A stretch of 64,000 nt of DNA from a virus, in IMG/VR virus record IMGVR_UViG_3300036985_002546, positions 1 to 64,000 of that record; one strand, written 5' to 3'. The notes beneath the pieces were generated by a model. It was not told the origin of the DNA. It was given only the letters and a program-made list of their open reading frames with translations, and made no database searches. The position numbers and the translations under genes are program-made. Shown here in pieces: positions 6,110 through 22,700 of the stretch (positions within the stretch are counted from its first letter, which is position 1; each line of letters begins with the position of its first letter).

Positions 6110-6900
6110 GCGTCACAAATGATTATAGATAAATGTGCAAACGAAGAACCGTAACTAGCGCCTGGTTGGAATGTGGCTTTAATTGGTTGTATTCCAGTTG
6201 GTCTTGTTATATTACCTACAGCTCCACCTAGTATTCCGTCTGAAGTGTAACCTATACTATTAAAGGTGCATGCAATAGTTCCATCTATTGTATTCCAAGT
6301 TCCACCTATTCTAACATTGTGTACCATTGTGGGTACGAATACAGATCCATGACTACGTCCAGCATAACCAACATTTATAGTAGATGAAGTTAATTTAGAT
6401 AAGTTATATACCCACTCTTTAGACAACACTTCAGAAGTAGTGGTAACGATAATTCTAGGAAACCAATTTAGTATAATTCCATTGCTTGATGAATCTGGAA
6501 TTATTTCAACAATAAGTGATTTAACCGAAGCATTTACTGATGTTCCACTTATTTTCTGTACGGAAAATTGTAAGTAAGACACATTAGTAGGTTTGGTTAT
6601 ATCTGCTGACTCTACATTTACTAGTTCAGCTCCTGTCGTATCTACTGATACTACTTCCGTACCGTCTGGTGTAGTACCAGAAGCTGGAGTTCCACCTATG
6701 CGCACACGATAGCGAACAGTACCTCCTGTGGTTTCAAATGACCCAACAACTCTAACGCGAAAAGACGTTCCAGGTACTGCGGTCCATGGTACTGCACACC
6801 AGGCAGTATTGCCTGTACTATCAGAAGGAGATACTGTTTCGTCTGATGTGGTTAGCGTAGATGGTGTAGCACCACTTAGCCCTAGTGCAAAAATTCCCAT
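6106..6900 (-). CDS. Putative tail fibre protein
   Basis: 264 aa, Ser/Thr/Gly-rich and beta-sheet-like throughout. The N-terminus MGIFALGLSGATPS and an early domain with VRIGG repeats and SFRVRVVGSF suggest a jelly-roll type fold. It has no catalytic motif or membrane segment. It directly follows the adhesin array and is coupled by a 4-nt overlap to the next gene. Its C-terminal half holds VRIGGTWN and IGYTSDGILGG. A virion surface role is inferred from composition and context. Confidence 0.65.
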   Translation of the reverse strand: MGIFALGLSGATPSTLTTSDETVSPSDSTGNTAWCAVPWTAVPGTSFRVRVVGSFETTGGTVRYRVRIGGTPASGTTPDGTEVVSVDTTGAELVNVESADITKPTNVSYLQFSVQKISGTSVNASVKSLIVEIIPDSSSNGIILNWFPRIIVTTTSEVLSKEWVYNLSKLTSSTINVGYAGRSHGSVFVPTMVHNVRIGGTWNTIDGTIACTFNSIGYTSDGILGGAVGNITRPTGIQPIKATFQPGASYGSSFAHLSIIICDA

Positions 6901-6920: not shown

Positions 6921-7931
6921 TTACCCAGTGATGACGGGGCTACTACCATTCCACGGGAAAATAAAATGACCTATTTGTACCCAGTTAAATGGTAATCCTG
7001 CTGAGTCGTAGCTTGTTGATGAGCTGGCCAAGCCAGTTACGCCGTGTGTTGCGCTACCGTAGTATAAATCATATGGATTCCCGAAATATCCACGTGCGTA
7101 AGGAGTTTCACTCCAAAGATAAATAGGACAGAATGGCCACTCTTTTAATACATCATGTGCAACCTTCCCGCCTAGTTGTCTTCCAAATGATGTACTAACA
7201 TACCCAAGAGAACCCATATAAAAATTACCTGTCGTGGTACTATGGCGAAAATACACAAATGATGATTGATCTTGGTAAACATAATATTCTAATCCAGTAT
7301 TTGTAGTACCCGAAGCAATGGCAGAGAAGTAAGCGTTTGTTCCAGTCCAACCAGGTACTGCGTTATTTACTGCATCAAACATCCATAATGCTGTATGATA
7401 ACCACCAGTACACAATATCACACGGGTACATTTTCCGTCTGTGCTTTGCATACAATGTACTTGACACAAAGAATTTGTGGCTCCAAAAGCCCAGTTAGCA
7501 TTATTTAACGAAACAATTTCATCTGTTGCCGTCGGTCTAGCCGTAGTACTTCCGTTGGTACCCCCATTAGCCGTCCCAAATCCATTTACAGGAGACACTA
7601 CAACAGTAGCTAGATACGTACTTGCATTGCTTAAATCAATACAAATAGAAAAATTTGTATTCAATCCTGCTTGTTTTAAAACTATCCATGAATGAGCTGA
7701 ACCACCAGTATTCCAAACTAAGTTGGCAGCTGTACTCCATCTATCAGTTCCGTCCATACCTGAAGTTGAACTATTACTAGAACCTACCACAGACCACGGT
7801 AGTGTACTAAAACCAATAAGAGAACTTTTGATTTTAAACATTACAGCTTTCATGGTATCCGCTAGCGTAGCACCATATTGTGCTGAGTTAACGTTAAATT
7901 GCCATACTTTTGATTTAGCTGGTGCAGGCAT
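6921..7931 (-). CDS. Array protein A4: ~330-aa adhesin-like paralogue
   Basis: 336 aa, the last A-type member of the tandem array. Landmarks shared with its paralogues are MPAPAKSK.WQFNVNS at the start, PWSVVGSSNSS, SGMDGTDRW, HSWIVLKQ, NGFGTANGGTNGS, ARPTATDE, HCMQSTDG and a Trp/Pro ending (FPWNGSS). A-type members are marked by a WPF motif and a final PWNG/PWDG. The protein is likely a virion surface or receptor-binding subunit, from position between tailspike and tail-tip genes. An AAGGA site lies 6 nt before ATG 7931. The B4 gene ends 9 nt upstream. Confidence 0.8.
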   Translation of the reverse strand: MPAPAKSKVWQFNVNSAQYGATLADTMKAVMFKIKSSLIGFSTLPWSVVGSSNSSTSGMDGTDRWSTAANLVWNTGGSAHSWIVLKQAGLNTNFSICIDLSNASTYLATVVVSPVNGFGTANGGTNGSTTARPTATDEIVSLNNANWAFGATNSLCQVHCMQSTDGKCTRVILCTGGYHTALWMFDAVNNAVPGWTGTNAYFSAIASGTTNTGLEYYVYQDQSSFVYFRHSTTTGNFYMGSLGYVSTSFGRQLGGKVAHDVLKEWPFCPIYLWSETPYARGYFGNPYDLYYGSATHGVTGLASSSTSYDSAGLPFNWVQIGHFIFPWNGSSPVITG

Positions 7932-7940
7932 GATTAATCC

Positions 7941-8927
7941 TTATAGCATGTTTGTAGAACCGTCCCAAGGCAAAATTAAGTCATTAGTATAAACCCATTC
8001 TTTTGAAGGTGTAGAATCAAATTGGACACCACGCATCAATCCAGGATCCCCAAAGTACATATCATAAGTTTCTCCCCAGATACCTCGTAATGGTGGCAAA
8101 TCACAAATATAAACTATCGGCCAATACTCTCGTACTCCTGTTAAATCGTTTACTAATTGACCTGTACCTCTTTCAATTATTGAACTTGAAACTACAAATG
8201 GTGTAGCCATGTACAATAAACCGGAAGTTAATGACGAACTTGGTTTAAAATTTAACCTTGCTGTATCGTTCCAATCTTGTACCCGCGCTCCAGAAGTTGT
8301 GGTAGATGATGAAGCTCTAAAACCCATAACCCAAGGAGTTGTCCAACCAGATATTGCGTTCTTTGGTTTATCAGCAATTAAAACAGTAACTGGATAGAGA
8401 TTGTTGGTAACCAGTACACGAGTACAAGCACCATCAGTACTTTGCATGCAGTGTACGCGGTATAATTGGGTAGAGGATAAATTGTCACCCCACACGGTAT
8501 TACTTAGAACCACGATCTCATCTGTAGCTGTAGGTCTAGCAGAAGTACTACCATTGGTACCTCCGTTGGCAGTACCAAATCCATTAGCTGGTGATAGTAC
8601 AATAGTCATGTTTACAGATGATGCATTACTTAAATCAAAGCATAGCTCAAATTTAGTAGCTAACCCTGTTTGACGTAAAACAATCCACGAATGAGCACCG
8701 GTTCCCCACACTAAATTTGTGGAAGTGCTCCAACGGTCTGTACCATCCATACTAGATGCAGAGCTATTGGAACTACCAGAAACCGTCCACGGTAGTGTGC
8801 TAAATCCTATTAAAGATGTTTTAATTTGCAGCATAGTTTGCTGCGTATCAGCTAAAACAGTACCACTAGCTCCTTTAGTATTGTTTACTGAATATTGCCA
8901 TGTTTTATCTTTTGTAGGAAGTGCCAT
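7941..8927 (-). CDS. Array protein B4: ~330-aa adhesin-like paralogue
   Basis: 328 aa, B-type. It keeps the shared core (SSNSSASSMDGTDRW, HSWIVLRQTG, NGFGTANGGTNGS, HCMQSTDG). B-type features are a Lys-Gly N-terminal stretch (NNTKGASGT), the segment KPKNAISGW and a GETYDMYFGDPG turn near the C-terminus. GGAG precedes ATG 8927 by 5 nt. It is the closest relative of B1 (16187-17173): both end with LILPWDG-type strands after a SxxEWVY motif. Function is inferred only from the array. Confidence 0.8.
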   Translation of the reverse strand: MALPTKDKTWQYSVNNTKGASGTVLADTQQTMLQIKTSLIGFSTLPWTVSGSSNSSASSMDGTDRWSTSTNLVWGTGAHSWIVLRQTGLATKFELCFDLSNASSVNMTIVLSPANGFGTANGGTNGSTSARPTATDEIVVLSNTVWGDNLSSTQLYRVHCMQSTDGACTRVLVTNNLYPVTVLIADKPKNAISGWTTPWVMGFRASSSTTTSGARVQDWNDTARLNFKPSSSLTSGLLYMATPFVVSSSIIERGTGQLVNDLTGVREYWPIVYICDLPPLRGIWGETYDMYFGDPGLMRGVQFDSTPSKEWVYTNDLILPWDGSTNML

Positions 8928-8948
8928 AAGTACTCCAATTAAACTTTG

Positions 8949-9233
8949 TTAGCTAATCCGTTTTGATACAATTACGTTCGATAGTGATCCTGGTCCTGTG
9001 TAAATTAGACCTGTGTAATCAACAAATGATGCAGTCCAGTAAACTGTAGTAGATAAAGTATTATCAAAACCTCTCATACGATATATACGTTTACCTGTTG
9101 CACCAGCTGTTGATCCGCTTAATGCTCCTGTGGTTTCTTTCTCAGAAACACTTGTATAGCTACTACTAGAACCGCTTACAACAGCTCCACTTGTGTTTAT
9201 CTGACCAGCTAACAATTCAACAGCTATAGACAT
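8949..9233 (-). CDS. Array protein S3: ~95-aa beta-rich paralogue
   Basis: 94 aa, third copy of the small S protein. The C-terminal half is conserved in all three copies: YRMRGFDNTL, VYWTASFVD, YTGPGSLSNV. This resembles a fibronectin-III-like or short fibre repeat, but I cannot place it in a family. Only a weak AAAGAA precedes ATG 9233. It lies 6 nt downstream of A3, as S2 does for A2 and S1 for A1. That order is one of the marks of the repeated cassette. Confidence 0.75.
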   Translation of the reverse strand: MSIAVELLAGQINTSGAVVSGSSSSYTSVSEKETTGALSGSTAGATGKRIYRMRGFDNTLSTTVYWTASFVDYTGLIYTGPGSLSNVIVSKRIS

Positions 9234-9239
9234 TGTTCT

Positions 9240-10241
9240 TTATCCCATTCGTTTGATACTCGAACCGTCCCACGGAACTATAAGTGTTCCAAACTGTGCC
9301 CAAGACAGTGCTGAACCCGACATATAATAATCCATTGGAATCGTATTACTGTTAGCGTTAGTACCCCAATATAGATCATAAGCTGTACCAAATAAACCTA
9401 AGACGCTTGTACTCGTACTTGCGAGTGTGATAGCAAAGAATGGCCATTCACCGCTTAAATCATGTGAAACTAGACCACCTGCGTGTTTTCCGAAAACAGA
9501 AGACACACAACCTGGTGTAGCAAAATAGAATAAACCAGCTGTTGTGCTGTGCTTAAAGTTTACGTTAGCGTTTGTATTGTTATAATACGTATAATCTAAC
9601 TGAGTTGCGGTAGAGTTTCCAATACCTTTAACCGAAAAATAAGCTTTTGTTCCTGTCCAACCAGACAATGCATTATTTGCATAATCAAACATGAACAACG
9701 ACACCGGATACCCGTTAGCGCAGATAATTACTCGTGTACACTTACCATCTGTGCTTTGCATACAATGTACTATACATGGCGTGTTATTTGCAGATCCAGT
9801 AATCCAATCTCCACCGTTCAGTATAACCATTTCATCTGTGGCCGTAGGTCTAGCAGCCGTACTCCCATCAGTACCACCATTTACAGTACCAAAGCCGTTC
9901 ACGGGAGAAACAACGACTGTAAGTAAATGTGTGTTGACGTTAGCACAGTCAAAACAAATTTCACATTTTGCAGCTAACCCTGTTTGACGTAAGACTATCC
10001 AAGAGTGTGGGTTTCCCGCACTGTTCCATTGCAGGTTAGTGGATGTCCATCTATCTGTTCCGTCCATACCAGAGGCAGAACTGTTAGAACTTCCAGACAC
10101 TGTCCACGGAGTAGACCCAAATCCCTTTAGTTTATCCTTAATATAATTGAGTATTCGTATACGTGAAGTATCGTAGTTTGCTCCACGCTGGAGTGAGTTA
10201 AGATTAAACTGCCAAGTTTTTACTTTAGATGGTGCTGGCAT
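9240..10241 (-). CDS. Array protein A3: ~330-aa adhesin-like paralogue
   Basis: 333 aa, A-type. It begins MPAPSKVKTWQFNLNS and keeps SGMDGTDRW, HSWIVLRQTG, NGFGTVNGG, ARPTATDE and HCMQSTDGKC. Divergence from A4 is greatest in two stretches: residues about 10-45 and the C-terminal half after the HCMQSTDG block, as expected if the core is a scaffold and the rest is exposed. ATG 10241 has only a weak GAG site. The closest matching ending is A2 (IVPWDGSS.K.MG against ILPWDGSSLKKLG). Confidence 0.8.
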   Translation of the reverse strand: MPAPSKVKTWQFNLNSLQRGANYDTSRIRILNYIKDKLKGFGSTPWTVSGSSNSSASGMDGTDRWTSTNLQWNSAGNPHSWIVLRQTGLAAKCEICFDCANVNTHLLTVVVSPVNGFGTVNGGTDGSTAARPTATDEMVILNGGDWITGSANNTPCIVHCMQSTDGKCTRVIICANGYPVSLFMFDYANNALSGWTGTKAYFSVKGIGNSTATQLDYTYYNNTNANVNFKHSTTAGLFYFATPGCVSSVFGKHAGGLVSHDLSGEWPFFAITLASTSTSVLGLFGTAYDLYWGTNANSNTIPMDYYMSGSALSWAQFGTLIVPWDGSSIKRMG

Positions 10242-10265
10242 TGTGTTTACTCATATTATAACGGA

Positions 10266-11261
10266 CTACCACCAAATCGTTGAATTAATATATGTCCAAA
10301 AGTCTTTTACATATGTCCATTTAGTATTATCTGTAGCAGTTGTAGGTAAGGTTATACCAGGATCACCAAAATATAAATCATGTAATTCTCCCCAAACACC
10401 ACGTGTTCCGACAGTATTGCTTATTAAAGTAATAGGATTAAAAGCTCTATTGGATGAGACTGAATTTGCGTTTTGTCCAGCAGTAGTTTCCATCCAAGTA
10501 GTGGTATTAACAAATGCTGCACCCATAAATAAGTTACCTATAGGTGAAGTCGTTGTTGGTTGAAAATATAACAATGCTGTATCGTTCCAATCTAAGATTC
10601 TAGCTGACGATGTAGAAGTTCCACCAGAACCTTTAATACCTGCGATCCATGGAGTAGTCCAACTTGATAGTGGATTTTTAGGTACAGCAAAAATAACAGT
10701 TGTAACCGGGTAGTTGTTAGTAATTACGTGCGTATGTGTACAAGTACCATCAGTACTTAGTGAAACACACACTTTATAACCATATGTGCTAAACGTACCA
10801 GGGTTATCATTCCATACAACGTTATTATGAATGATTATTTCGTCAGTAGCTGTCGGTCTAGCAGATGTACTACCGTCAGTACCCCCGTTAACTGTCCCAA
10901 ATCCGTTATTTGGAGACACAACAACAGTCATAATACTGCTGTTAGAGTTACTTAAATCAAAACATACCTCAAACTTTGTCGCTATGGTGGGTTGACGTAG
11001 TACAATCCACGAATGAGCACCAGTACCCCAAATTAAATCTACGTAATTGGGCCATCTGTCTGTACTATCCATACCTGACGCAGAACTACTTGAACTACCA
11101 GATACCGTCCATGGATTTGTTGGGGAGGTTTCTTGCCCACGAAAAGCACGTTTGACAAGCCACAATATCGCTTGGTTATCTGTAAGTTTGCTGCCATTAG
11201 GACCTATTTGACCTTGGTTGGCTACACTTTGCCAAGTTTTTGTTGTAGATGGTGATGCCAT
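10266..11261 (-). CDS. Array protein B3: ~330-aa adhesin-like paralogue
   Basis: 331 aa, B-type. It starts MASPSTTKTWQ and has a longer loop with PNGSKLTDNQ. The core is conserved (SGMDSTDRW, HSWIVLRQ, NGFGTVNGGTDGS). The usual HCMQSTDG is changed to VCVSLSTDG, a feature partly shared with B2, which has also lost it. It ends with GVWGELHDLYFGDPG and no PWDG. The start ATG 11261 is 25 nt after no gene on its own: the S2 gene ends 3 nt upstream, so it is probably read by coupled translation. Confidence 0.78.
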   Translation of the reverse strand: MASPSTTKTWQSVANQGQIGPNGSKLTDNQAILWLVKRAFRGQETSPTNPWTVSGSSSSSASGMDSTDRWPNYVDLIWGTGAHSWIVLRQPTIATKFEVCFDLSNSNSSIMTVVVSPNNGFGTVNGGTDGSTSARPTATDEIIIHNNVVWNDNPGTFSTYGYKVCVSLSTDGTCTHTHVITNNYPVTTVIFAVPKNPLSSWTTPWIAGIKGSGGTSTSSARILDWNDTALLYFQPTTTSPIGNLFMGAAFVNTTTWMETTAGQNANSVSSNRAFNPITLISNTVGTRGVWGELHDLYFGDPGITLPTTATDNTKWTYVKDFWTYINSTIWW

Positions 11262-11264
11262 GTA

Positions 11265-11552
11265 TTAACTCAGTATGTGTACAATTGTTATATTTGTTAA
11301 TGGTCCTGGTCCTGTGTATTGCGCACCAGTACTATCTACTGACGTGGCTGTCCAGTATACCGTTGTAGTAAGTGTAGTATCATAACCACGCATTCTATAG
11401 TTATTTGTAGGTGTTACTAACGCTGTACCACTAAATGCTGCTGTGATTTTATTGTTGGGTTGAGGTAGTAATTCACCCGATACTCCTGCCAAAGCAGTAA
11501 GTGAAGTAGTCAGTTGACCTGCAACAATGTTATCAATAGCAAATGTCGCCAT
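11265..11552 (-). CDS. Array protein S2: ~95-aa beta-rich paralogue
   Basis: 95 aa, second S copy. YRMRGYDTTL, VYWTATSVDSTG and YTGPGPLTN are nearly the same as in S1 (YRMRGYDTTL, VYWLAVTID, YTGPGPLSN). The N-terminal half is freely diverged and rich in Ala, Thr and Ser. It is flanked by A2 upstream (4 nt) and B3 downstream (3 nt), so it marks the junction between two cassettes. The start ATG 11552 follows an AGG with 7-nt spacing. Confidence 0.75.
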   Translation of the reverse strand: MATFAIDNIVAGQLTTSLTALAGVSGELLPQPNNKITAAFSGTALVTPTNNYRMRGYDTTLTTTVYWTATSVDSTGAQYTGPGPLTNITIVHILS

Positions 11553-11555
11553 GTG

Positions 11556-12527
11556 TTAACCTAGTTTCTTTAGCGAAGATCCATCCCACGGAAGAATAAG
11601 GTCACCAAATTGTGTCCACGTGTATCCAGGATAGTCTACTTTACCCTGGAAGTTCTCACTACCCCAGTATAAATCATATGGAGTACCAAAGATCCCGCAT
11701 CCATTAGTTCCGTTCCCAGCTAGACTTATAGGCATAAACGGCCACTCATTAGTAAAACTTGCAGTTTTACTACCACCTGGATTACGCCCGTAGGGTGCTG
11801 ACGAATAACCCAAAGTAGCTAACCACACAGGAATATAAAAGGAATTTGCTTTTACAATTAAGTTTGCATTTTCGTTAAGTGTGGGGTAAGAAACAGCATT
11901 TCCAAGTTGAGAATATACACCAAACAATAGCCTTGGTGTATTCCAACCAGTTATTGCATTCTTTGGTGTATCAAATACCAATATATTGATAGGATACCCG
12001 TTAGAACAAACAATTACTCTAGTACACGTACCGTCAGTACTTTGCATACAGTGTACTACGTATGCTGGTGATGCGTCACTACCACCCCAAGATGTACCAG
12101 GAAGTGTGTACGAGTCAGTTGCTGTAGGTCTAGCAGTAGTACTACCGTTGGTGCCTCCGTTTGCTGTACCAAAGCCGTTTACAGGAGAAATTAAAAAGGT
12201 AGCTGTGTATGAAGAACTAGCTGAGTTACAATCAATGCACACTTCAAATTTAGTATTTAGTCCTGTCTGACGTAAAACGATCCATGAATGAGCACTACCA
12301 TCGTTGTTATGTAATATTTTTGTGTAGTCAGTCCATCTATCAGTTCCATCCATACCTGATGTAGCACCATCTGAAGATCCTGAAATTGTCCAAGGGTTAG
12401 TTCCGAATCCTTTTAATGCGTTTTTAATTTGTAATGCCATTAAGTTTAGTCTATAAACTGGCGTAGAATCATAACATATGGCGTTTACATTGAATTGCCA
12501 GGTTTTAGATCTTGATGGGACACTCAT
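11556..12527 (-). CDS. Array protein A2: ~330-aa adhesin-like paralogue
   Basis: 323 aa, A-type, the shortest member. It begins MSVPSRSKTWQFNVNA. The core is SGMDGTDRW, HSWIVLRQTG, NGFGTANGGTNGS, ARPTATDS (Glu changed to Ser) and VVHCMQSTDG. In the middle it carries KNAITGW, normally a B-type feature, so it may be a recombinant between the two types. The C-terminus returns to A-type (EWPFMPISL, YTWTQFGDLILPWDG). AAAGG precedes the start at longer spacing. The B2 gene ends 18 nt upstream. Confidence 0.8.
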   Translation of the reverse strand: MSVPSRSKTWQFNVNAICYDSTPVYRLNLMALQIKNALKGFGTNPWTISGSSDGATSGMDGTDRWTDYTKILHNNDGSAHSWIVLRQTGLNTKFEVCIDCNSASSSYTATFLISPVNGFGTANGGTNGSTTARPTATDSYTLPGTSWGGSDASPAYVVHCMQSTDGTCTRVIVCSNGYPINILVFDTPKNAITGWNTPRLLFGVYSQLGNAVSYPTLNENANLIVKANSFYIPVWLATLGYSSAPYGRNPGGSKTASFTNEWPFMPISLAGNGTNGCGIFGTPYDLYWGSENFQGKVDYPGYTWTQFGDLILPWDGSSLKKLG

Positions 12528-12545
12528 GTTAATTAGACCTTTTAT

Positions 12546-13559
12546 TTACCGCCAAACTTGTGAGGGCATAACAAACATCATTAAGTCAATAAACATAAAG
12601 GACGAAGAATCTGTAGGTATATCTCCATGTCCTGCAAAATTGTCTGTAAAATATAAATCGTACACCTCACCCCACACACCATTTGTACCTGCTGTATCAC
12701 TAATTAATGCAATAGGATAAATAGTGTAGTTTCCGCTAATTTTATTTGAATTTGGACTTATACTATAGTAGGCGTCAAAGAGTCCTCTAGTTCCTGTAAA
12801 TGTTGTAGCCATAAACAACTTGCCTACAGGAGAGGTAGTTGTGGGTTTAAAAAATAGTTTATCGTACCTATTATAATGATTATACGTATCATACTGATTT
12901 TTTAGTACACCCGAACCAGGTGATAAGGATGATGTTATTCCTGCTATCCATGGATTTGTCCAAGAGGATATAGGATTCTGTGGTTTTTCAATAAAAAACG
13001 CCATTACAGCACACGTGGCATATGTGTACGATGTAGTTAGGAATATACGCACACAATCCAAGGTATCAGTACACACAGCGTTAATATAATAGCCAGATGT
13101 ATTATAAAAACTACCGATATTATCAGCCCAAGTAGCATTATTTACCACTACAATTTCATCTGTAGCTGTAGGTCTAGCAGAAGTACTTCCATCGGTACCA
13201 CCATTTGCAGTACCAAAACCGTTATTAGGTGAAATTACTATTGTAATAGTACTACAGGTAGTACTACTGACTAAATCAAAACATATCTCAAATTTACTTG
13301 TTATAGCTGTTTGACGTCGAACGATCCAGGAATGTGCTCCGGTACCCCACACTAAATTAGTGTAAGTAGACCAACGATTGCTTCCGTCCATACCTGACGT
13401 AGAGCTGTTAGAACTACCAGAGCACGTCCACCCGCTGTCTGATAACGCACTACTAATCTCAAAGATTACTTTTTGACCATTACTTAGCGCATCAGTACCT
13501 TTAATATTATTGGTAGTACCTCTACGGATCCAATTTTTACTTAACGATGGTGATGCCAT
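12546..13559 (-). CDS. Array protein B2: ~330-aa adhesin-like paralogue
   Basis: 337 aa, the most diverged B-type member. It begins MASPSLSKNWIRRG. The core is SGMDGSNRW, HSWIVRRQ, NGFGTANGGTDGS, ARPTATDE, but the Cys block is replaced by INAVCTDTLDC. An insertion with Tyr/Asn-rich sequence (NQYDTYNHYNRYD) lies near residue 225. The ending GVWGEVYDLYFTDN is B-type. No Shine-Dalgarno site is visible before ATG 13559; the U2 gene ends 11 nt upstream, so coupling is possible. Confidence 0.78.
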   Translation of the reverse strand: MASPSLSKNWIRRGTTNNIKGTDALSNGQKVIFEISSALSDSGWTCSGSSNSSTSGMDGSNRWSTYTNLVWGTGAHSWIVRRQTAITSKFEICFDLVSSTTCSTITIVISPNNGFGTANGGTDGSTSARPTATDEIVVVNNATWADNIGSFYNTSGYYINAVCTDTLDCVRIFLTTSYTYATCAVMAFFIEKPQNPISSWTNPWIAGITSSLSPGSGVLKNQYDTYNHYNRYDKLFFKPTTTSPVGKLFMATTFTGTRGLFDAYYSISPNSNKISGNYTIYPIALISDTAGTNGVWGEVYDLYFTDNFAGHGDIPTDSSSFMFIDLMMFVMPSQVWR

Positions 13560-13570
13560 AAAAAATTTTA

Positions 13571-13783
13571 TTAATCTATATAATTAGGAGTCAAGAATTG
13601 AAGACCATCTGCTGTTTGAGTGCCTATTAGCGTAATTTCATACACACTGCGATAGATCGCATCAGGTAAATTTATGTCACGCCATGCTTCAAATTTACTT
13701 TGAGCTTGTTCTGGGCTCTCTGCACGAACCATCGTGCAATTCATAGATAAATCACGAACCGAATAAATATTGTATGTTTCCAT
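13571..13783 (-). CDS. Array protein U2: intact ~70-aa paralogue
   Basis: 70 aa. The pattern is NIYSVRD, MVRAESPEQAQSKFEAW, LPDAIYRSVYEITLIG, ending LTPNYID. The ATG at 13783 directly follows the stop of T2, so it is read by coupled translation. It is the intact relative of the start-less copy at 17183-17383 (shared VRAE, KSKFEEW, ANLPDA, CRSV-type and LITPVYLD-type blocks). The compact alpha/beta form and short length suggest a chaperone or cap rather than a fibre, but that is a guess. Confidence 0.75.
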   Translation of the reverse strand: METYNIYSVRDLSMNCTMVRAESPEQAQSKFEAWRDINLPDAIYRSVYEITLIGTQTADGLQFLTPNYID

Positions 13784-14770
13784 TTAGTTCACCGTGTGTG
13801 TGATTTGTATGTAAGATCCACCCAATTCAACAGAATCAGCTGGATTTGATGGACTTGTAACCCAAACTTCTACTTGATACACTTTGGAAGACGTTTTTAT
13901 ATTTCCTGAACTGCTTCCTATAGTAAGAGCTGCGTCAGAGAATGCTGGTGTAGTGCTTGTAAATGTTAACGTAGCTACAGTTTCTGAATCTGTTACATTA
14001 GTCAATCTAACGTTACCTGTAGCCGTGTACCCGATAGCAGCTACAGCTCTAAACCTCATAGTTTTGGTAGTTCCAGTGATGCTATAATCAGATGGATTCA
14101 GTTCAAATTGGTGTACGATAAGGTGTGTATCACTGTTGTACGACGTACTAGATCCACACGACAATGGAATAGTTACCTTGTCACCTGTTGCACCAATTCC
14201 ACCGCTAGCGGTGGAAGCTATAGTTAAAGTTTCATCAGCACCAGCACTACCTTTAGTTAAGGTAACGTTAGTACCAGCTACTAGTTTTCCTAAAAGATAT
14301 CCAGGAGTTGTGTCTCCAGACGAGACAGTAGATTTTGCTTTAGCTGAATTTAACGTTCCGAGAGTAGAATCTGATTGACGCATAAACATCGTCATATCAG
14401 GTTGCCACCCCTTAATATTTCCACCTGCGTTATACTCCAGTTTTTCATCATATCCTGGAATACGTGCGCCAGTAGTTGCTAATGGCACAGCTATAACAAC
14501 TACGGAGGTGTCAGAACCGTTTACTATACATCTTACACGGTATGAACCAGTGTGTGATGGTGAGAAGGTTGCTGTTGGTGTTGATGCACCGCTTAAAGAT
14601 GATGTTGAACCAGTAGGAATATCTACTAAAGTCCATGCATACGCTGCACCACTGTTACCAGGTTCAGTGTCTGTTAAAGTAATAGTTTCATAGAGCACTA
14701 AGTCATTACGGCCTACACCAGTTACATCACCGGACGTACTGCCGCTACTTTTAATTATCGGTGTCGCCAT
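13784..14770 (-). CDS. Array protein T2: PKD/Ig-like fibre protein
   Basis: 328 aa. Residues 1-95 look like a PKD or Ig-like bead: DLVLYETITLTD, YAWTLVDIPTGS, LSGASTPTATFSP, GSYRVRCIVNG. The middle has YNAGGNIKGWQPDMTMFMRQ and a LVAGTNVTLTKGSAG motif typical of fibre shafts. The last ~130 residues form another beta domain ending SYIQITHTVN. T1 (18576-19691) has the same three parts plus a ~40-residue insertion. The 110-nt gap upstream (14771-14881) holds no gene; AGGAA lies 11 nt before ATG 14770. Confidence 0.78.
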   Translation of the reverse strand: MATPIIKSSGSTSGDVTGVGRNDLVLYETITLTDTEPGNSGAAYAWTLVDIPTGSTSSLSGASTPTATFSPSHTGSYRVRCIVNGSDTSVVVIAVPLATTGARIPGYDEKLEYNAGGNIKGWQPDMTMFMRQSDSTLGTLNSAKAKSTVSSGDTTPGYLLGKLVAGTNVTLTKGSAGADETLTIASTASGGIGATGDKVTIPLSCGSSTSYNSDTHLIVHQFELNPSDYSITGTTKTMRFRAVAAIGYTATGNVRLTNVTDSETVATLTFTSTTPAFSDAALTIGSSSGNIKTSSKVYQVEVWVTSPSNPADSVELGGSYIQITHTVN

Positions 14771-14881
14771 GTGTATTTTATTTCCTGTTAGTTGGTTGTG
14801 GCGATTTCAAAGATACTTTGTAATATACTAGTAAATAGTACACCAATCGTGTTTCTTAGTCTAGAAGTAGTTCAAAGATTT

Positions 14882-15178
14882 TCAATGACCTACAACGTTA
14901 TACACCACTATATTTGATAGTGGTCCCGGTCCTGTATACTGACTGCCTGCTGTGTCAATTGTTACAGCTAGCCAGTATACATTGTACCCCAAGGTAGTAT
15001 CATATCCTCTCATTCTATACACCAGCGAACCTCCTGACCCTATGGTAGAGCCGCTTATAGCTGCTGATGATGTAGAAGATACTTGTCCGGACATAAAATC
15101 ACCACCAGCACCATCTTGCACGCCACCAAATGTTGCGTCTATTTGGTTTGATACATAGTCACCATTAACATCGGCCAT
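14882..15178 (-). CDS. Array protein S1: ~95-aa beta-rich paralogue
   Basis: 98 aa, first S copy in the direction of transcription. It has VYRMRGYDTTLG, NVYWLAVTIDTAG, YTGPGPLSNIVVY. The N-terminus (MADVNGDYVSNQIDATFGG) is unrelated to S2 and S3. An AGGA site 6 nt before ATG 15178 is good. It is followed by the 110-nt gap before T2, the largest intergenic space inside the array, so the next cassette may have its own promoter, though no clear -35/-10 pair is seen. Confidence 0.75.
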   Translation of the reverse strand: MADVNGDYVSNQIDATFGGVQDGAGGDFMSGQVSSTSSAAISGSTIGSGGSLVYRMRGYDTTLGYNVYWLAVTIDTAGSQYTGPGPLSNIVVYNVVGH

Positions 15179-15181
15179 AGA

Positions 15182-16177
15182 TTATCCTATTCGCTGTGCA
15201 GCAGTACCATTCCATGGAAAAATCATGTTACCAAACTGTGCCCATGAAAATGGCACAGATGATAAGTCATAACTCACCATAGAGTTGGGTGTTGTAGAAC
15301 CCCAATACAGGTCATACACTGTACCCCATTGTCCTCTAAGTGTGGAAGTTTCGCACCACAGCCCCATAGGACAAAAAGGCCATTCTTTTGTTATATCTTG
15401 CACAATGATCCCACCAGGCTGTCTTGGAAATGCTGAAGATCCATATCCTGGTGTTGAGAGGTAGAAGTTGCCGTTTGTGGTATTGTGTTTAAAAAACAAT
15501 GTACTACTTGCGTCATTATAATTACCAAAAGTTAGTTGATTAGAAGCAGAACCTACACCCCAAAAACCATAAAAAGCCTTGGTTCCTGTCCATCCAGACA
15601 ACCCATTATTTACTGCATCAAAAATCATTAATGTACAAGGTACACCGCTAACACAAATAACAGCACGTGTACAAGCTCCATCAGAACTCTGCATTACGTG
15701 TACAGCTAGTGTTATGTTAGTAGCTCCGTTAACCCACCCATTTGCGTTAGATGTTGCTAGTACAGTTACCTCATCAGTAGCTGTAGGTCTAGCAGAAGTA
15801 CTACCGTTGGTTCCCCCGTTTGCTGTCCCAAATCCATTCACAGGAGAAACCACAACGTTCATAATTGAGTCGGTTGCTGAAGCTAGGTCGAAGCACACTT
15901 CAAATTTAGTGGCCACACCTGTTTGACGTAAAACAATCCATGAATGTGCACCTGAACCCCAAACTAAATTTGTATACGCACTCCATCTATCTGTACCGTC
16001 CATACTTGATGCTGAACTACTAGAACTTCCGGATACAGTCCAAGGTGTAGAACCGAATCCGATCATGGATGATTTTATTTGGTATAATACGTTTTGGTGT
16101 AGTATTAACGTACTCGTACCTGTTTGTAGGGAGTTTACGTTAAATTGCCAAGTTTTGGTTTTAGTTGGTGCGGGCAT
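15182..16177 (-). CDS. Array protein A1: ~330-aa adhesin-like paralogue
   Basis: 331 aa, A-type. It begins MPAPTKTKTWQFNVNSLQTG. The core is SSASSMDGTDRW, HSWIVLRQTG, NGFGTANGGTNGS, ARPTATDE; the Cys block reads HVMQSSDGAC. It ends FSWAQFGNMIFPWNG, closest to A4 (FNWVQIGHFIFPWNG). So the outermost members A1 and A4 look more alike at the C-terminus than A2 and A3 do. AAGGA stands 6 nt before ATG 16177, and the B1 stop is 9 nt upstream. Confidence 0.8.
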   Translation of the reverse strand: MPAPTKTKTWQFNVNSLQTGTSTLILHQNVLYQIKSSMIGFGSTPWTVSGSSSSSASSMDGTDRWSAYTNLVWGSGAHSWIVLRQTGVATKFEVCFDLASATDSIMNVVVSPVNGFGTANGGTNGSTSARPTATDEVTVLATSNANGWVNGATNITLAVHVMQSSDGACTRAVICVSGVPCTLMIFDAVNNGLSGWTGTKAFYGFWGVGSASNQLTFGNYNDASSTLFFKHNTTNGNFYLSTPGYGSSAFPRQPGGIIVQDITKEWPFCPMGLWCETSTLRGQWGTVYDLYWGSTTPNSMVSYDLSSVPFSWAQFGNMIFPWNGTAAQRIG

Positions 16178-16186
16178 AATTAGTCC

Positions 16187-17173
16187 TTACTGCATGGCAT
16201 TGGCGCCATCCCATGGAAGAATCATATCACTGACAAATACCCATTCATGTGATGGAGATGAATCAAATCCTGTACCTCTAGCCACTCCTGTAGACCCAAA
16301 ATAAAGATCATACATTTCACCCCACATACCCCTCATTCCAGTAGATTCACTAATAACTGTAATAGGGAAGAATGGCCAATTACCTGACACATCGTTGGCT
16401 ACAGTTCCTGCGGTTCTAACAGCTAATGTTTGTGTCAATACCATAGGTATAGATAGATAAGCACTTCCAACGGTTAACGTTGTTTTTGGTTGTAGTTTCA
16501 TATTAGCTGCGGTAATCCAATCAGCTATTCTTGCTCCACTGGTAGTTGCTGATGCTGATGCTTTAAATCCAACTAACCACGGAGCATCCCAACCTGTTAC
16601 TGCATTTTTTGGTCGATCTATGATCCAAACAGAAACAGGGTATAGGTTATTTGTAACTAAAATTCGTGTACATTGTCCGTCTGTACTCTGCATACAATGT
16701 ACTTTATACGATTGCCCAGAACCTGGTGCGTCATTCCACGTGGTATTACTTAAAACTACATATTCATCTGTGGCTGTAGGTCTTGCGGTAGTGCTACCAT
16801 CAGTACCACCGTTTGTGGTACCGAAACCATTTGCAGGAGAAATTACAATTGTTGCTGAGTTAGAACTTGCGTTGGCTAGGTCTATACATAATTCAAATTT
16901 AGTTGCCATTCCGGTTTGACGCATGACAATCCAGGAATGAGCACCAGAGGCCCACACTAGATTTGTATCAGCAGCCCAACGGTTACTTCCGTCCATACCA
17001 GAAGCAGAACTGTCTGAAGAGCCAGAACAGGTCCACGGTTGTGTGCCGAAGGCAGTTAAAGCAACAGGAATCTGACGCATGGCTGCCCTGTTGTCTGTAA
17101 GTAAAGTACCGGAACCGCCTTTAGCTATATTTATTGTGTGTTGCCAAGTTTTTGATTTTGTTGGTAAACCCAT
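16187..17173 (-). CDS. Array protein B1: ~330-aa adhesin-like paralogue
   Basis: 328 aa, B-type. It begins MGLPTKSKTWQHTINIAKGGSG. The core is SGMDGSNRW, HSWIVMRQTG, NGFGTTNGGTDGS, ARPTATDE, HCMQSTDGQC, then RPKNAVTGW. The ending SHEWVFVSDMILPWDG matches B4. It has the best ribosome site of the array (AAGGAG, 5-nt spacing). That site lies just after the stop of the damaged U1 gene, so B1 does not need read-through translation from U1. Confidence 0.8.
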   Translation of the reverse strand: MGLPTKSKTWQHTINIAKGGSGTLLTDNRAAMRQIPVALTAFGTQPWTCSGSSDSSASGMDGSNRWAADTNLVWASGAHSWIVMRQTGMATKFELCIDLANASSNSATIVISPANGFGTTNGGTDGSTTARPTATDEYVVLSNTTWNDAPGSGQSYKVHCMQSTDGQCTRILVTNNLYPVSVWIIDRPKNAVTGWDAPWLVGFKASASATTSGARIADWITAANMKLQPKTTLTVGSAYLSIPMVLTQTLAVRTAGTVANDVSGNWPFFPITVISESTGMRGMWGEMYDLYFGSTGVARGTGFDSSPSHEWVFVSDMILPWDGANAMQ

Positions 17174-17182
17174 TGACTCTCC

Positions 17183-17383
17183 TTAATCTAAGTAGACAGG
17201 TGTAATTAGCATTTTCTCGCTACTTGGGGGTCCTACTAACCTAACATAATCAACAGATCGACAATCAGCGTCTGGTAAGTTGGCTAGGCACCATTCTTCA
17301 AATTTACTCTTGGCACCTTCTTCGGTCTCCGCTCTAACAAATGTTAGATGTCTTGAGTTGTCAAATACTTCGTATAAATTCGT
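17183..17383 (-). pseudogene. Array gene U1: ~66-codon copy lacking a normal start (ACG in place of ATG)
   Basis: The frame from ACG 17383 encodes 66 residues colinear with U2: NLYEVFDN, VRAETEEGAKSKFEEW, LANLPDA, then YLD before TAA. In frame upstream there is no ATG, GTG or TTG before a stop that lies inside the tnpB 3' end. The codon where Met is expected is ACG. An AAGGAAGAAGGG purine stretch lies 8 nt before it, so weak ACG initiation cannot be ruled out. The frame is otherwise undamaged, so the lesion looks recent. A fragment with the original ATG remains at 18574 on the other side of the element. Confidence 0.75.
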
Positions 17384-17400
17384 GTTTCTACCCTTCTTCC

Positions 17401-18480
17401 TTATTTATTGTTGAGTATTTCTTCTGCAAGAGGCAGAACACTCTGCCCAAGTTTGAGTATATTCAAGGAAGAGTTTGTATCTCTGTCGTGTATTGTATTA
17501 CAATTTGAACATACCCATTCTCTTATTCCAAGACCTGCGATACCTTTCGGCCTCGACTCAGGTAGAGTACCACAAGTCGAACAGGTTTGGGTTGTAAATT
17601 TTTCGTTGACAATTTTGAAATAAGCTTGATGCCTACTGGCTTTATACTCAAGCATAGTTCTAAACTTGTACCAACTTGAATTCATTACACTTTTAGCTAA
17701 GTGTGTCTTTGCAAGTTTGGTAGAGTTTACATTGCCTACGATTATTGTTTTGTTTTCTGCTGCTATTTTATGACTAGCTTTGTGTAAGAAATCCTTTCGT
17801 ATATTTTTAATTTTAGCGTGTATTGCTTTTACTCTTTTTTTATTGTGTGCTCTTTGTGCTACAGCTAATTTCTCTTCGTATTTGTAGTAAGTCTTTGGAT
17901 TCTCTATCTTTTCTCCGGTAGACAAGGTAGCGAGTGTCTTTAATCCTAGGTCTATACCTACTTCACCTGTACCTGTAGGTAAATTAGGTACATCTACATA
18001 CAAACATACATACCACTTACCTTGTGAATCCTCTACAAAACTACCTCCAGTAACTTTGTTTGGAATAGGTCTACGTTTAATTCCAAATAACTTAAAGATA
18101 TTACCTAGATAGGATATAGAGTCTGTACCTACTTGTCTAGACTGTTCTTGGAAAGGAATCCAACCTAGAGATTTCTTGGATCCAAAACTAACTCTAAATT
18201 TAGGACATTTCTTGTGTTGATTTCTACTCTGTACAAATTGTTTGCATATACATTTAGATGTCTGTGCGTGTATTCCTAATTCTTTCGAGGTACCTTTTGT
18301 TAGAGATCCTAAATCAAAAAAACTAAGCCAATGTGTATTAGATCCTTGCTTATACAACAATTGTGTTTTCTTTTGTGTAGCTACACAAAAATTCCACACC
18401 TGATTTACAGAAAAAGACATACGTGACAAGATATTAATCTTGTTTTTGTCCTTAATTCTATATTTATAAGTAAGAATCAT
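17401..18480 (-). CDS. tnpB: TnpB (IS200/IS605-type RNA-guided nuclease family)
   Basis: 359 aa. RuvC-I is GIDLGLKTLA with D177. The canonical RuvC-II Glu position is a Gly (IIVGNVN, G249). A Glu 44 residues later (E293 in VNEKFTTQTC) could replace it, as reported for a TnpB/Fanzor subgroup with a rearranged site. The zinc ribbon has C300, C303, C324 and C327, and RuvC-III is HDRDTNSSLN (D334). The N-terminal lobe is shorter than usual. TnpB binds an omega RNA made from the element's 3' end and cuts matching DNA; the activity here is not proved. No tnpA is present. Confidence 0.92.
   Translation of the reverse strand: MILTYKYRIKDKNKINILSRMSFSVNQVWNFCVATQKKTQLLYKQGSNTHWLSFFDLGSLTKGTSKELGIHAQTSKCICKQFVQSRNQHKKCPKFRVSFGSKKSLGWIPFQEQSRQVGTDSISYLGNIFKLFGIKRRPIPNKVTGGSFVEDSQGKWYVCLYVDVPNLPTGTGEVGIDLGLKTLATLSTGEKIENPKTYYKYEEKLAVAQRAHNKKRVKAIHAKIKNIRKDFLHKASHKIAAENKTIIVGNVNSTKLAKTHLAKSVMNSSWYKFRTMLEYKASRHQAYFKIVNEKFTTQTCSTCGTLPESRPKGIAGLGIREWVCSNCNTIHDRDTNSSLNILKLGQSVLPLAEEILNNK
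17419..17448 (-). repeat. 30-bp motif, tnpB copy (hairpin-forming)
   Basis: This lies in the last codons of tnpB and encodes GQSVLPLAEE. It contains a perfect 6-bp hairpin (GGCAGA, loop GTGT, TCTGCC). It matches 63788-63817 at 28 of 30 bases, in the same reading phase (GQSVMPLVEE). In this family the 3' end of tnpB doubles as the omega-RNA scaffold, so this may be RNA structure as well as protein code. Confidence 0.75.
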
Positions 18481-18532
18481 AGTTATGACTAATATATTAA
18501 AACAGTATTAATAACGCAGTGTTTACTATACC

Positions 18533-18574
18533 TTAATTTTCAAAATTTAAACTTACTAGAGCATATAAATTCAT
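18533..18574 (-). pseudogene. 5' fragment of U1 (start codon side)
   Basis: ATG 18574 lies one base after the stop of T1, where U2 starts after T2. It reads M-N-L-Y and then leaves the U sequence, stopping after 13 residues. The other half of U1 resumes N-L-Y-E at 17380 beyond tnpB. Together they show where the insertion fell. Confidence 0.65.
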
Positions 18575-18575
18575 G

Positions 18576-19691
18576 TTAATTTACCGTATTAATGATGCGT
18601 ATTTCAGCAACACCCAACTCTATAGAATCTAAAGATGATGCTGGACTGTTGACCCATATGTGTACTTCATAGAATTTGGAGGAATTTTTTAAATTACCTG
18701 AACTACTTCCTATTGTTAGAGTAGAACTTTGTATGCTTAGTGTTGTAGAGCTGAAAGTTAAAGTAGCTACCGTTTCTGAATCTGACACGTTTATTAATCT
18801 TACATTTCCGGTTATTCCACTGTTACCCATTAAACCTGTAGCCCTAAACACAGCTGACATAGTCGTGCCTGCCACAGTAAAATCACTTGGATTAACTTCT
18901 ATCACACCGACTATTAGGTGTGTATCTGAGTAATAACTTTTATTTATTCCGCATAAAATAGGATTAATTAATTTATTAGTCGACGCACCAATACCACCTG
19001 CTGTGGAAGCTATAGTTAGTGTTTGATCTGTACCTGGAGTACTAGGTGTTAACGTTATATTAGTACCAGCTGCTAGCTTTCCGTAAAGATATCCTAGAGT
19101 TGTGTCACTGGATGATACAGTTGCCAGACCATCAGAGGAAATTTTTATATTTTCGTTAAAACCTGCATTCTGTTTAGTTAACGTTACTCCATCACCCTCA
19201 ACTAATTTATCCCAAAGAAATCCAGATGTTGTGTCATTTGTAGTAATTTTTACTTTATTAGTTCCTACAGTAACTGTAGACAATGCAGCGTCAGTTTGAC
19301 GCATAAATAACGTTTGATCTGTATGCCATCCTTTAGTATTACCATCACCATCATATTGCGTTAATTCGTTATACGCCGGAATCCTTGCGGTAGTATAACT
19401 TAATGCAACGGCAATGATTTCCTCAGACGAAGAAATTCCGTTTACTAAACAATTAACTCTGTAAGATCCCGTAACATCAGGAGAAAATGTCGCGGTAGGT
19501 GTTGATGCTCCTGATAATGAAGCGGTAGAAGTAACTGGAGTATCTAAGAACGTCCAAATGTAGGTAGCGCCTACATTGGCTGTTTCGGCATCTGTAAGTG
19601 TTACTGTTTCTCCAATAATAAGATCTTTTCTGCCGTGTCCAGTGATAGTACCAGAACTAGAACCAGTACTTCTTATTATCGGTGTAGCCAT
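18576..19691 (-). CDS. Array protein T1: PKD/Ig-like fibre protein
   Basis: 371 aa, first member of the array. It has an N-terminal PKD-like bead (DLIIGETVTLTD, YIWTFLDTP, LSGASTPTATFSP, GSYRVNCLVNG), a YDGDGNTKGWHTDQTLFMRQ segment, two copies of a shaft motif (LVEGDGVTLTK and LAAGTNITLTP, one more than T2), and a C-terminal beta domain (LTIGSSSGNLKNSSKFYEV). The 14-bp space to the tailspike gene suggests cotranscription with it. A virion fibre role is inferred. Confidence 0.78.
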   Translation of the reverse strand: MATPIIRSTGSSSGTITGHGRKDLIIGETVTLTDAETANVGATYIWTFLDTPVTSTASLSGASTPTATFSPDVTGSYRVNCLVNGISSSEEIIAVALSYTTARIPAYNELTQYDGDGNTKGWHTDQTLFMRQTDAALSTVTVGTNKVKITTNDTTSGFLWDKLVEGDGVTLTKQNAGFNENIKISSDGLATVSSSDTTLGYLYGKLAAGTNITLTPSTPGTDQTLTIASTAGGIGASTNKLINPILCGINKSYYSDTHLIVGVIEVNPSDFTVAGTTMSAVFRATGLMGNSGITGNVRLINVSDSETVATLTFSSTTLSIQSSTLTIGSSSGNLKNSSKFYEVHIWVNSPASSLDSIELGVAEIRIINTVN

Positions 19692-19706: not shown

Positions 19707-22700
19707 TTAGATGTGTATGTGTGCTCTAAAGTTTAATCCGATATCCGAATATCCGGTAGGTGCCGCAAATGGATTTCCACCTTCTGTGTCTGTGGTAGCT
19801 TGTGTTCCAGAATCTGCTAAAAATGTCCCGTTCCTTTCTATGGCAAATCCGTCTCCGCTAGTCCAAGTTGCACCACTAACCACAGAGCAGACATTGGCGT
19901 ATATTATACTGTGTGATGAACCCCATGTAGTAGGTACTCTAATTCCGTGTGCATATACCCTGTTAGTAGATGCATCTGCACCCCAGTAGCACACGTTACC
20001 TATAATTGATCCTACGACGTACTCTGGACCGCTAGAAGAGGGTACCTGTGATGCATCAATACAACAAGCGTCAGAGTTAGTATAACCTTTATAGATTACT
20101 GTATTTCCATTTATGTTAAACCACTTTTTATTTACAATAATGCCTGCATTGCTAGCAGCATTACCACTGATTAATATAGAATTTCCTGTAATAAAGTTAC
20201 TTATACCTGCAACATTAATACCTTGGTGTGGTGCATCTATGAAATTACCTTTTACAGTTACTTGAGGAGTTAGGGCAATAGTCACACCTGTTACGGTTAC
20301 AGCAACTGCGCTAGTATAACTTAATGATATGTTGTTATCATTAATTAGTGTTGACGATAACTCATCGGTAGCAAGAACGTTAACACCCGTTTTTCCTGTA
20401 TTTATTAAATTTCCTAATATGGAACAGTTCGATATAGAACCTACTGTATTGATTATTGAAACTGCATTACAGTACGGGTTATTAGAATCAATACTGTTGT
20501 TTTTGATAGTAATCATATCCACTAATGACGCAGCTGTTAATAAACCTATACCGTGTACTACAACACCATACGGTGACGTGATACCCTTGATTTGGTTATT
20601 ACTTATAGTTATGCTTGTGCTATTTGTATCTAAATTTAAGAGTAAACTACTGATCCCAGTAGCTGTTGCACTAGTGTTACCGATAGTATGTATTTGGTTG
20701 TTGTTTTCTGTGATATTTATTAGCTCTCCCGTCAAGAAAATACCACTACAAGTACTATTAGTAGTTCCTAAACCTGAAGTACCTAAATGATCTATTTGGT
20801 TGTTAGATACACTAAGTTCATTACATGTATCTGCATAGATACCATAACAAGTAGAATCTACGCCACTAGAGGTTGGATTGATGTTAGTGATTAAATTGTT
20901 CGATATAGAAACTCGCTCTACTTCTTGTAATTCAATTCCACATGCGTTAGTTGTACCCCATACAGTGTCTAATTGGTTGTTACTGATTATTGTATCAGTT
21001 ACAGATGGAGCACTTATAAGAGAAATGCCTTTTGAGTTAGCAGCAGAAGTTTTTAATGAGTTAATATTGTTGCTACTAATCTCAGTCTTTGTGCATGTAC
21101 TTTCAATTAAAATTCCAGTTAGATTAACACCGAGTGTTGTGGTGGCTCCTATAGAATTGTTTGTGATGTTTGTTTTGGATATATAACTGGATGAAGTTCC
21201 ATAAATACTGTTTACACAGTCTGTTATCGTGTTGTTTGCTACAGTACAAGCAGTACTACCATCCAGAATAATACCTTGAGCAGTAGTACTGGATGCCCCA
21301 GCTTTACAGATTATGGTATTTCCTAACACATCACAGTTTGTTGGTTCGTTGTATAAATAAATACCAGTAGATGTGCCGCCTAAATACACGATATTATTTT
21401 GTATTCTACATGTATCGGCTTTAGGCATCAATAGGGCATTTACAAACGGAACACCACCACTAAACGGATAGATAAACGTACAGTCTTCAATAGAAATACT
21501 TTGGGCACCACCTGTAGCATCGGTACTGTTGATATACACTGCATGGTCTATAGCAGTACCAGTACTTGTAGAGCCAAAAATACAATTTCTAAGAGATACG
21601 TTAGAAGCTACTCCTGCTTTTACAATACAGTCTGATGCGCTTACACCTGTTGATTGTGTAAACTTTACGTTGTCAAATACACAGTCTATTAGTGCTGTAA
21701 CGTTAATTGGTTGTGTAGTCGAACCAATTACAACCTGACTAAAAGTTGAACTAGTGTTAAGATTTCCGCCTATACCACCTAAATCACAGTTATATGCGTT
21801 TATTTTACCAGTTCCGATAAAACACGCTGTTAGCGTGCTATAAGATACAGGTGCCCACATTATATTTTCTATTGTTAAGGATGTGGTTCGCGTTAGAGTA
21901 GCGGAAGAATGTGCAGGATTTACAATTGTTCTATTGCGTGATTCACCAACGATATGAATTGGTACTGTTGCTGTTAAACCTGTAGTTAAACTGTAGGTAC
22001 CGTCTTTTATGTAGAGCGTTCCTCCACCCCTTGTGTTTAGGTAAGCTACAGCGTTTGTAAACGCTGTATTAACAGATACTGCGTTGGTATTAAAATCACC
22101 GAATGTGTTAACACCATCACCTATAGAAACAGATACGCTTCTAGACGGGATAACACCACTGGATGGTGAATAGTATCTATTATTAGTTGTAAATGGACCA
22201 AGAGGTGGTGCAGTGTTGCCTAGTGTGGTGTTTTGTGACGCACCAAATTTTAGCTCTCTAATCTGACTTGATAGGTGGTCAATATAGTTTTTAAGTGATT
22301 TAAGTTCAGTATCTGTACGAGTGTCTCCTACATCATTAGGATCTAGTCCGAGTAAATAACCTGTATTTTCATCCCCTGAAAAGAAGTGTGTTCGTTGGTC
22401 TAGTGATCCAGTTCCCTGTGTAGTAAGAAATACTGAACCAGTAACAGAGCAGCGGCTACCAATTGGGTGTGTGTTGCCTGGTGAGGAACCTAGTGTTAGA
22501 ATACCATTTTCCTGATCGTTAGTACTTATTGTGACTGTCTCTGCAAGTCCCGTGCCAGGAGAGAGAACTAATGAAAAAGAATCTACGGGTAATTCTCTGG
22601 AGTTGGTAACATAGATCTTAGAACTTGACGGTGTAACGGCTTGCAGTAGTACGGAACTTATAGAGTGTGTAGTTCCTGTTATTACACCACCAGCTACTAT

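What the first reader, a model, noticed from the sequence alone, without database searches (positions are those of the whole stretch)
6921..19691. Tandem multi-gene adhesin cassettes (T-U-B-A-S repeated four times)
In transcription order the genes read T1, U1, B1, A1, S1; T2, U2, B2, A2, S2; B3, A3, S3; B4, A4. This is one cassette amplified and partly trimmed, not random paralogy. It yields eight ~330-aa proteins with a strongly conserved core (NGFGT.NGG, ARPTATDE, HCMQSTDG) and diverged ends. The conserved core is also similar at DNA level, which would favour recombination between copies. A system for switching or mixing receptor-binding proteins is an attractive inference, different from a diversity-generating retroelement because no reverse transcriptase is seen.
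Basis: partly seen in the sequence, partly recalled or inferred. Interest (0 to 1): 0.92.

Follow-up and report, generated by a model that had tools for sequence, protein, structure and literature searches.

The report
Duplicated phage tail-fibre arm genes
An uncultivated contractile-tailed phage carries eight related tail-fibre building-block genes, duplicated as paired cassettes; they look like fixed, specialised parts of a host-attachment arm rather than a switching system.

Summary
The array is real. Eight tandem ~330-aa paralogues (four B-A pairs) lie with two T, two U and three S genes at 6921-19691 on the minus strand. Two corrections: a TnpB gene interrupts cassette 1, and U1 has no start codon. 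A, B and S give compatible trees, (1,((2,3),4)). That fits one T-U-B-A-S duplication followed by B-A(-S) duplication inside the second module, so cassettes 3 and 4 were probably never 'trimmed'.

A1 models confidently (pLDDT 91) and matches one solved structure far above the rest: JBD30 gp47 (Z 17.2; next 4.9). JBD30 gp47 and gp48 are same-fold neighbours forming heterodimers in pilus-binding side arms. By sequence the family matches no PHROG, Pfam or cultured phage.

Core relatives lack the family but keep the flanking genes, so this is a swappable adhesin locus. In one relative the T N-terminus is kept and everything after it replaced.

Switching is poorly supported: no reverse transcriptase, invertase or integrase was found; copies are synonymously near-saturated; in other phages each copy's closest relative is the same-position copy. 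Best model: T-anchored arms built from several different gp47/gp48-like subunits used together. The fold is shown by prediction; pairing and co-assembly are inferred.

The parts
18576..19691 (-). T1: fibre/anchor protein, 371 aa; N-terminal Ig/PKD-like domain, repeats, C-terminal beta-sandwich (by homology to T2)
   Evidence: 51% to T2; N-terminal 142 aa 51% to T of relative L091
17401..18480 (-). TnpB (IS605 OrfB type), an insertion that is not part of the cassette; flanked by near-repeat ATGAATTTATATG (18562-18574) / ACGAATTTATACG (17371-17383)
   Evidence: Pfam PF07282 and PF01385 above cut-off; phrog_506; flanks
17183..17383 (-). U1: small ORF similar to U2, without a start codon (start site interrupted by tnpB)
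   Evidence: translation; HMM E 2.3e-43 (model built on U1 and U2 themselves)
16187..17173 (-). B1: gp47/gp48-fold subunit, 328 aa (fold by homology to A1)
15182..16177 (-). A1: gp47/gp48-fold subunit, 331 aa; the protein modelled
   Evidence: AF2 pLDDT 90.7, pTM 0.91; 8rk3_K Z 17.2 over 255 residues
14882..15178 (-). S1: small conserved protein, 98 aa
   Evidence: S family directly downstream of A/B-type genes in several other phages
13784..14770 (-). T2: fibre/anchor protein, 328 aa
   Evidence: AF2 pLDDT 67.8 overall, C-terminal domain mostly >85; Z 9.9 to CBM-like folds and 8.4 to a PKD domain
13571..13783 (-). U2: small protein, 70 aa; ATG directly after the T2 stop codon
12546..13559 (-). 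B2, 337 aa
11556..12527 (-). A2, 323 aa
11265..11552 (-). S2, 95 aa
10266..11261 (-). B3, 331 aa
9240..10241 (-). A3, 333 aa
8949..9233 (-). S3, 94 aa
7941..8927 (-). B4, 328 aa
6921..7931 (-). A4, 336 aa (no S after it)
6106..6900 (-). 264-aa protein that closes the variable locus; no counterpart at this place in four syntenic relatives
19707..23225 (-). conserved upstream border: 1172-aa beta-helix tail-spike-like protein
   Evidence: phrog_2234 4e-8; homologue at the same place in L088-L091
4707..6109 (-). conserved downstream border: two related genes (4707-5258 and 5255-6109)
   Evidence: homologue at the same place in L088-L091

Best explanation
This is the adhesin locus of a contractile-tailed phage. 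It encodes two T-anchored attachment arms. T (N-terminal Ig/PKD-like anchor, C-terminal sugar-binding-type beta-sandwich) joins the baseplate. Neighbouring B and A proteins, which share the fold of JBD30 gp47, pair as heterodimeric bricks in the way gp47 and gp48 do. S is a small connector or cap for each pair. Module I is T1-U1-B1-A1-S1; module II is T2-U2 with three pairs (2, 3, 4). The four pairs arose by duplication of whole units and have diverged into fixed, specialised parts used together, not alternatives that are switched. Shown by computation: gene order, gp47-type fold (prediction), unit-wise duplication, replaceable locus, positional stability of copies in other phages. Inferred: heterodimerisation, co-assembly in one particle, receptor binding, roles of T and S.
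For: Fold: A1 model pLDDT 90.7; VIA-align Z 17.2, rmsd 3.7, 255 residues to 8rk3_K, next row Z 4.9. The numbering of 8rk3_K up to residue 318 fits gp47 (318 aa) and not gp48 (307 aa). BFVD hits I6NQT6 (332 aa) and I6NP94 (353 aa) match in length KL1_00022 and AH2 gp52, at the gp47 and gp48 positions. Pairing precedent: gp47/gp48 are neighbours with similar folds forming heterodimeric arms (PMC11445458); Lydia gp67/gp68 likewise by prediction (PMC11946847). Pairs as units: same best topology for A and B; L009 has a single T-B-A-S with B next to the window Bs (94/91) and A among the window As (97/66); in L026/L028 an X-Y pair is duplicated with a small gene between, while L043 has the pair once. 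Fixed parts: same-position reciprocal best hits in 7/7, 3/3, 3/3, 2/2 and 3/3 copies. Locus: variable between conserved 19707 and 4707 genes in four relatives; family absent from core relatives (positive control); T anchor kept 54% over 141 aa while the rest differs.
Against: No sequence-level link to gp47/gp48 (hhalign 7.9% and 0.4%; no PHROG hit). Arrays of three (L010, L040, L045, L047, L021) and single copies (L042, L017) exist, so strict pairing is not universal in the family. B was not modelled separately. No virion proteomics. The array could be several separate fibres rather than two arms.
Confidence: 0.57

Rival explanations
1. A repertoire for switching or mixing: copies recombine with each other through the conserved core and make new receptor-binding proteins.
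For: A 32-nt identical stretch over ARPTATDE between B2 and B4 and 29 nt between A1 and B4, longer than expected from codon usage (P 0.005). The flanks of the core are more diverged than the core. In L026 against L028, position 6 is far more diverged at synonymous sites (dS 1.02) than its neighbours (0.38 and 0.26), so single copies are exchanged between phages.
Against: Synonymous codons among copies are near random expectation overall. Paralogues keep position-specific identity in other phages. No reverse transcriptase, resolvase or integrase and no good inverted repeats. A and B trees agree, which frequent conversion between copies would blur. The replaced copy at L026/L028 position 6 is still the positional orthologue, so the exchange was with other phages, not with a neighbour in the array.
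Confidence: 0.12
2. Separate adhesins for different hosts: each B-A pair forms its own small fibre with its own receptor, all on one particle, without mixed arms.
For: Diverged C-terminal halves (16-47% identity). Two T anchors with the same N-terminal domain (61% identical). Phages with several different receptor-binding proteins on one particle are well known (general knowledge).
Against: Cassettes 3 and 4 have no T anchor of their own, which fits branching or stacking on the T2 module better than independent attachment.
Confidence: 0.25
3. Accessory enzymes or decoration proteins of the tail (for example surface-polymer processing) that share the fold but are not adhesins; JBD30 gp47 was itself classified as a nitrilase-superfamily hydrolase by its authors.
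For: PMC11445458.
Against: No enzyme family matches. The columns invariant over 44 relatives are W80, P131, G285 and D289, not an obvious catalytic set. The locus lies where relatives keep large fibres or a lectin-like protein.
Confidence: 0.06

Closest known systems
JBD30 tail-fibre proteins gp47/gp48 (8rk3, 8rk5; PHROG phrog_687)
   Same: Fold of the whole subunit (Z 17.2), neighbouring same-fold gene pair, baseplate-associated tail genes
   Different: No sequence similarity detectable; one pair between the tape-measure and distal-tail genes in every siphophage checked, against four pairs plus T/U/S genes downstream of the baseplate wedge genes in a sheathed-tail phage
Pseudomonas phage Lydia gp67/gp68 (Mesyanzhinovviridae)
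   Same: Two neighbouring tail-fibre proteins of one fold, proposed heterodimers (PMC11946847)
   Different: Single pair; member of phrog_687-like siphophage tails
Adhesin loci with exchangeable tips in tailed phages (general kind)
   Same: Conserved borders, conserved anchor N-terminus, variable content
   Different: The content here is an array of four paralogous pairs
Diversity-generating retroelements and invertase-switched tail fibres
   Same: Both diversify receptor-binding proteins
   Different: No reverse transcriptase, invertase or suitable inverted repeats here

Membership tests
JBD30 gp47/gp48 tail-fibre family (phrog_687) | gp47-type fold over most of the chain | tested here: met
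   Z 17.2, rmsd 3.7, 255 aligned residues, next match 4.9; BFVD hits to siphophage structural proteins whose lengths fit the gp47 and gp48 positions
JBD30 gp47/gp48 tail-fibre family (phrog_687) | Sequence similarity to the family profile | tested here: not met
   No PHROG hit up to E 1 for A1 and B1; hhalign probability 7.9% with gp47 and 0.4% with gp48 profiles
JBD30 gp47/gp48 tail-fibre family (phrog_687) | Two neighbouring genes for two paralogues of the same fold | tested here: met
   Four B-A pairs 9-24 nt apart; single B-A pair in L009
JBD30 gp47/gp48 tail-fibre family (phrog_687) | Location between tape-measure and distal-tail genes of a siphophage | tested here: not met
   Location downstream of baseplate wedge and tail-spike genes in a phage with a tail sheath
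JBD30 gp47/gp48 tail-fibre family (phrog_687) | Heterodimers stacked in a lateral arm; pilus binding | not testable with these tools
   Needs complex prediction, cryo-EM or binding assays
Diversity-generating retroelement | Reverse transcriptase gene | tested here: not met
   PF00078 has no match in the record; control genomes ring; the record may be incomplete
Invertase-switched tail fibres | Serine recombinase and inverted sites | tested here: not met
   PF00239 and PF00589 have no match in the record, which may be incomplete; only 4 weak inverted pairs of 19-30 nt
IS200/IS605 TnpB element (17401-18480) | OrfB and zinc-ribbon nuclease domains | tested here: met
   PF07282 77 bits, PF01385 65 bits, both above cut-off

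The most novel reading that the evidence does not exclude
A phage attachment arm that is an ordered hetero-polymer: several different gp47/gp48-like heterodimers, each encoded by its own cassette and holding a fixed place, with single places updated by allele exchange between phages. The same principle appears independently in unrelated uncultivated phages, some of them with very large genomes.
Probability: 0.33. Interest if true: 0.75.

Novelty: new variant of a known kind. Interest (0 to 1): 0.55.

Why it matters
The A/B proteins belong to a family absent from the tested PHROG and Pfam libraries and from 50,697 phage genome records, yet present in dozens of uncultivated phage contigs, including records of 301 and 354 kb. 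Linking it to the JBD30 arm gives it a likely function and extends that arm type beyond siphophages. The array suggests how a repeated homogeneous arm could become a mixed one by gene duplication, and it predicts directly testable copy-specific roles in host recognition.

Tried and rejected
Near-identity DNA search in phage records: no match. Protein search of A1 and of L026 position 4 in phage records: no match. Foldseek against PDB alone gave nothing significant; the JBD30 match came from the VIA-align second look. PDB sequence search with the profile: nothing. Search of bacterial and archaeal genomes: no relative found with the tight patterns used, and the wider alignment gave no usable pattern. 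Rfam scan of 5-24 kb: nothing. The large tree puts A2 outside the L009 A copy, at odds with the outgroup placing assumed in the five-taxon test; holding A1-A4 together is not rejected (p-AU 0.135), and A2 is a long branch, so I rely on the outgroup-rooted test. The row 'F1' used a guessed start in L028 and is not used. T, 818-aa-gene and single-protein A searches in viral contigs found no near relative of the array itself. T fold matches at Z 8-10 fit a common beta-sandwich and are not read as a specific family.

Full report
What is there. The window belongs to a 71.8-kb virus record of a contractile-tailed phage: portal, major head protein, tail sheath and baseplate wedge genes are recognised. 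The stretch 6921-19691 holds, in transcription order on the minus strand, T1, tnpB, a U1 remnant, B1, A1, S1, T2, U2, B2, A2, S2, B3, A3, S3, B4, A4. A and B are one family of 323-337 aa, with eight copies and no others in the record. U1 has no ATG, and a 13-bp near-repeat lies on both sides of the insertion.

How it arose. With the paralogues of L009 (a phage with a single T-B-A-S cassette) as outgroups, all 15 topologies of the four copies were compared. The best is the same for A and for B: (1,((2,3),4)). For B only the three topologies joining 2 and 3 survive the AU test. The S tree also joins S2 and S3. In the wider tree the B branch containing L009's first copy (94/91) and the A branch containing its second copy (97/66) are separate, and forcing all eight window copies into one clade is mildly rejected (p 0.038). 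So the B/A split is older than the split from L009, and the window lineage later amplified the cassette. Cassettes 2, 3 and 4 group apart from 1, and only 1 and 2 carry T and U. The simplest reading (inference) is one T-U-B-A-S duplication followed by duplications of the B-A(-S) part inside the second module.

What A and B are. They match no PHROG or Pfam family and no phage record by protein search. An AlphaFold2 model of A1 on 44 relatives is confident (pLDDT 90.7, pTM 0.91). Its one outstanding match among solved structures is chain K of the JBD30 baseplate, Z 17.2 over 255 residues, the next row being 4.9. The residue numbering (2-318) fits gp47 (318 aa), not gp48 (307 aa). Independently, the viral model library returns siphophage structural proteins whose lengths fit the gp47 and gp48 positions of KL1 and AH2. 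In JBD30, gp47 and gp48 have similar folds, form heterodimers, and three heterodimers make each lateral pilus-binding tail fibre (PMC11445458). At sequence level the link is not detectable, so I claim a shared fold and a likely shared role, not membership of phrog_687.

The locus. Relatives with 64-73% identical major head protein and 44-54% identical baseplate wedge lack the A/B family (positive control). In four of them the order baseplate - 818-aa gene - 1172-aa tail-spike-like gene - [variable] - 4707 - 4207 is kept (helicase 2334 also in three), and the variable part differs every time: almost nothing, two giant paralogous fibres, unrelated proteins, or a T gene plus a lectin-like protein. 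In the last case the first ~140 residues of T are 54% identical to T2 and the rest differs. This points to the T N-terminus as a conserved anchor and to what follows as exchangeable. T2's C-terminal domain is a carbohydrate-binding-type beta-sandwich by fold, a common fold that proves no function.

Fixed parts or switching? The core's DNA similarity is largely explained by protein constraint: identical residues use the same codon in 40-55% of cases against 40-44% expected. One 32-nt identical stretch over the ARPTATDE motif exceeds codon-redrawn simulations (P 0.005), but the simulation ignores shared ancestry; an occasional short conversion is possible. In other phages with arrays, each copy's reciprocal best hit in a related phage is the copy at the same position: 7/7 between L026 and L028, 3/3 between L010 and L040, 3/3 between L045 and L047, 2/2 between L038 and L041, and all three L021 copies. 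Within L026/L028, synonymous divergence jumps from 0.38 to 1.02 and back to 0.26 across positions 5, 6 and 7, so single positions are replaced between phages while keeping their place. No reverse transcriptase, serine recombinase or integrase was found. This favours fixed, specialised parts over a switching repertoire.

Independent recurrence. In L026 and L028 two X-Y pairs follow each other with a 78-aa gene between, while L043 has the pair once. S-like genes directly follow the A/B-type genes in L009, L010, L011, L039, L044, L045 and L047. Pair-wise amplification therefore happened more than once. Against a strict pair rule: arrays of three and single copies also exist.

Conclusion. A new variant of a known kind: a gp47/gp48-like tail-fibre arm locus amplified to four diverged pairs. 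The heterodimer and mixed-arm steps are inference and need complex prediction or structural data.

Noticed in passing
window 17371-18574: A tnpB without tnpA interrupts the start of U1 and is flanked by a 13-bp near-repeat (ATGAATTTATATG / ACGAATTTATACG), which is unusual because IS200/IS605 elements are not known to duplicate their target (general knowledge). No Rfam match around it.
   Followed up: partly
L026 and L028: Copy 6 of 7 is far more diverged at synonymous sites than copies 5 and 7, a sign of single-copy allele exchange between phages at a fixed position.
   Followed up: partly
L011:4797-11290: A second, unrelated-looking array: T, three ~410-aa paralogues, S, one A/B-type gene, S. 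The 410-aa proteins have no family match and may be remote relatives.
   Followed up: partly
G016 (record of L040), 28561-32726: Further weak A/B-family matches over about 4 kb outside the three-copy array, suggesting a second, more diverged array.
   Followed up: no
window 55344-56675: Protein with a domain shared by minor head proteins and DarB-like antirestriction proteins (phrog_4660, phrog_10089).
   Followed up: no
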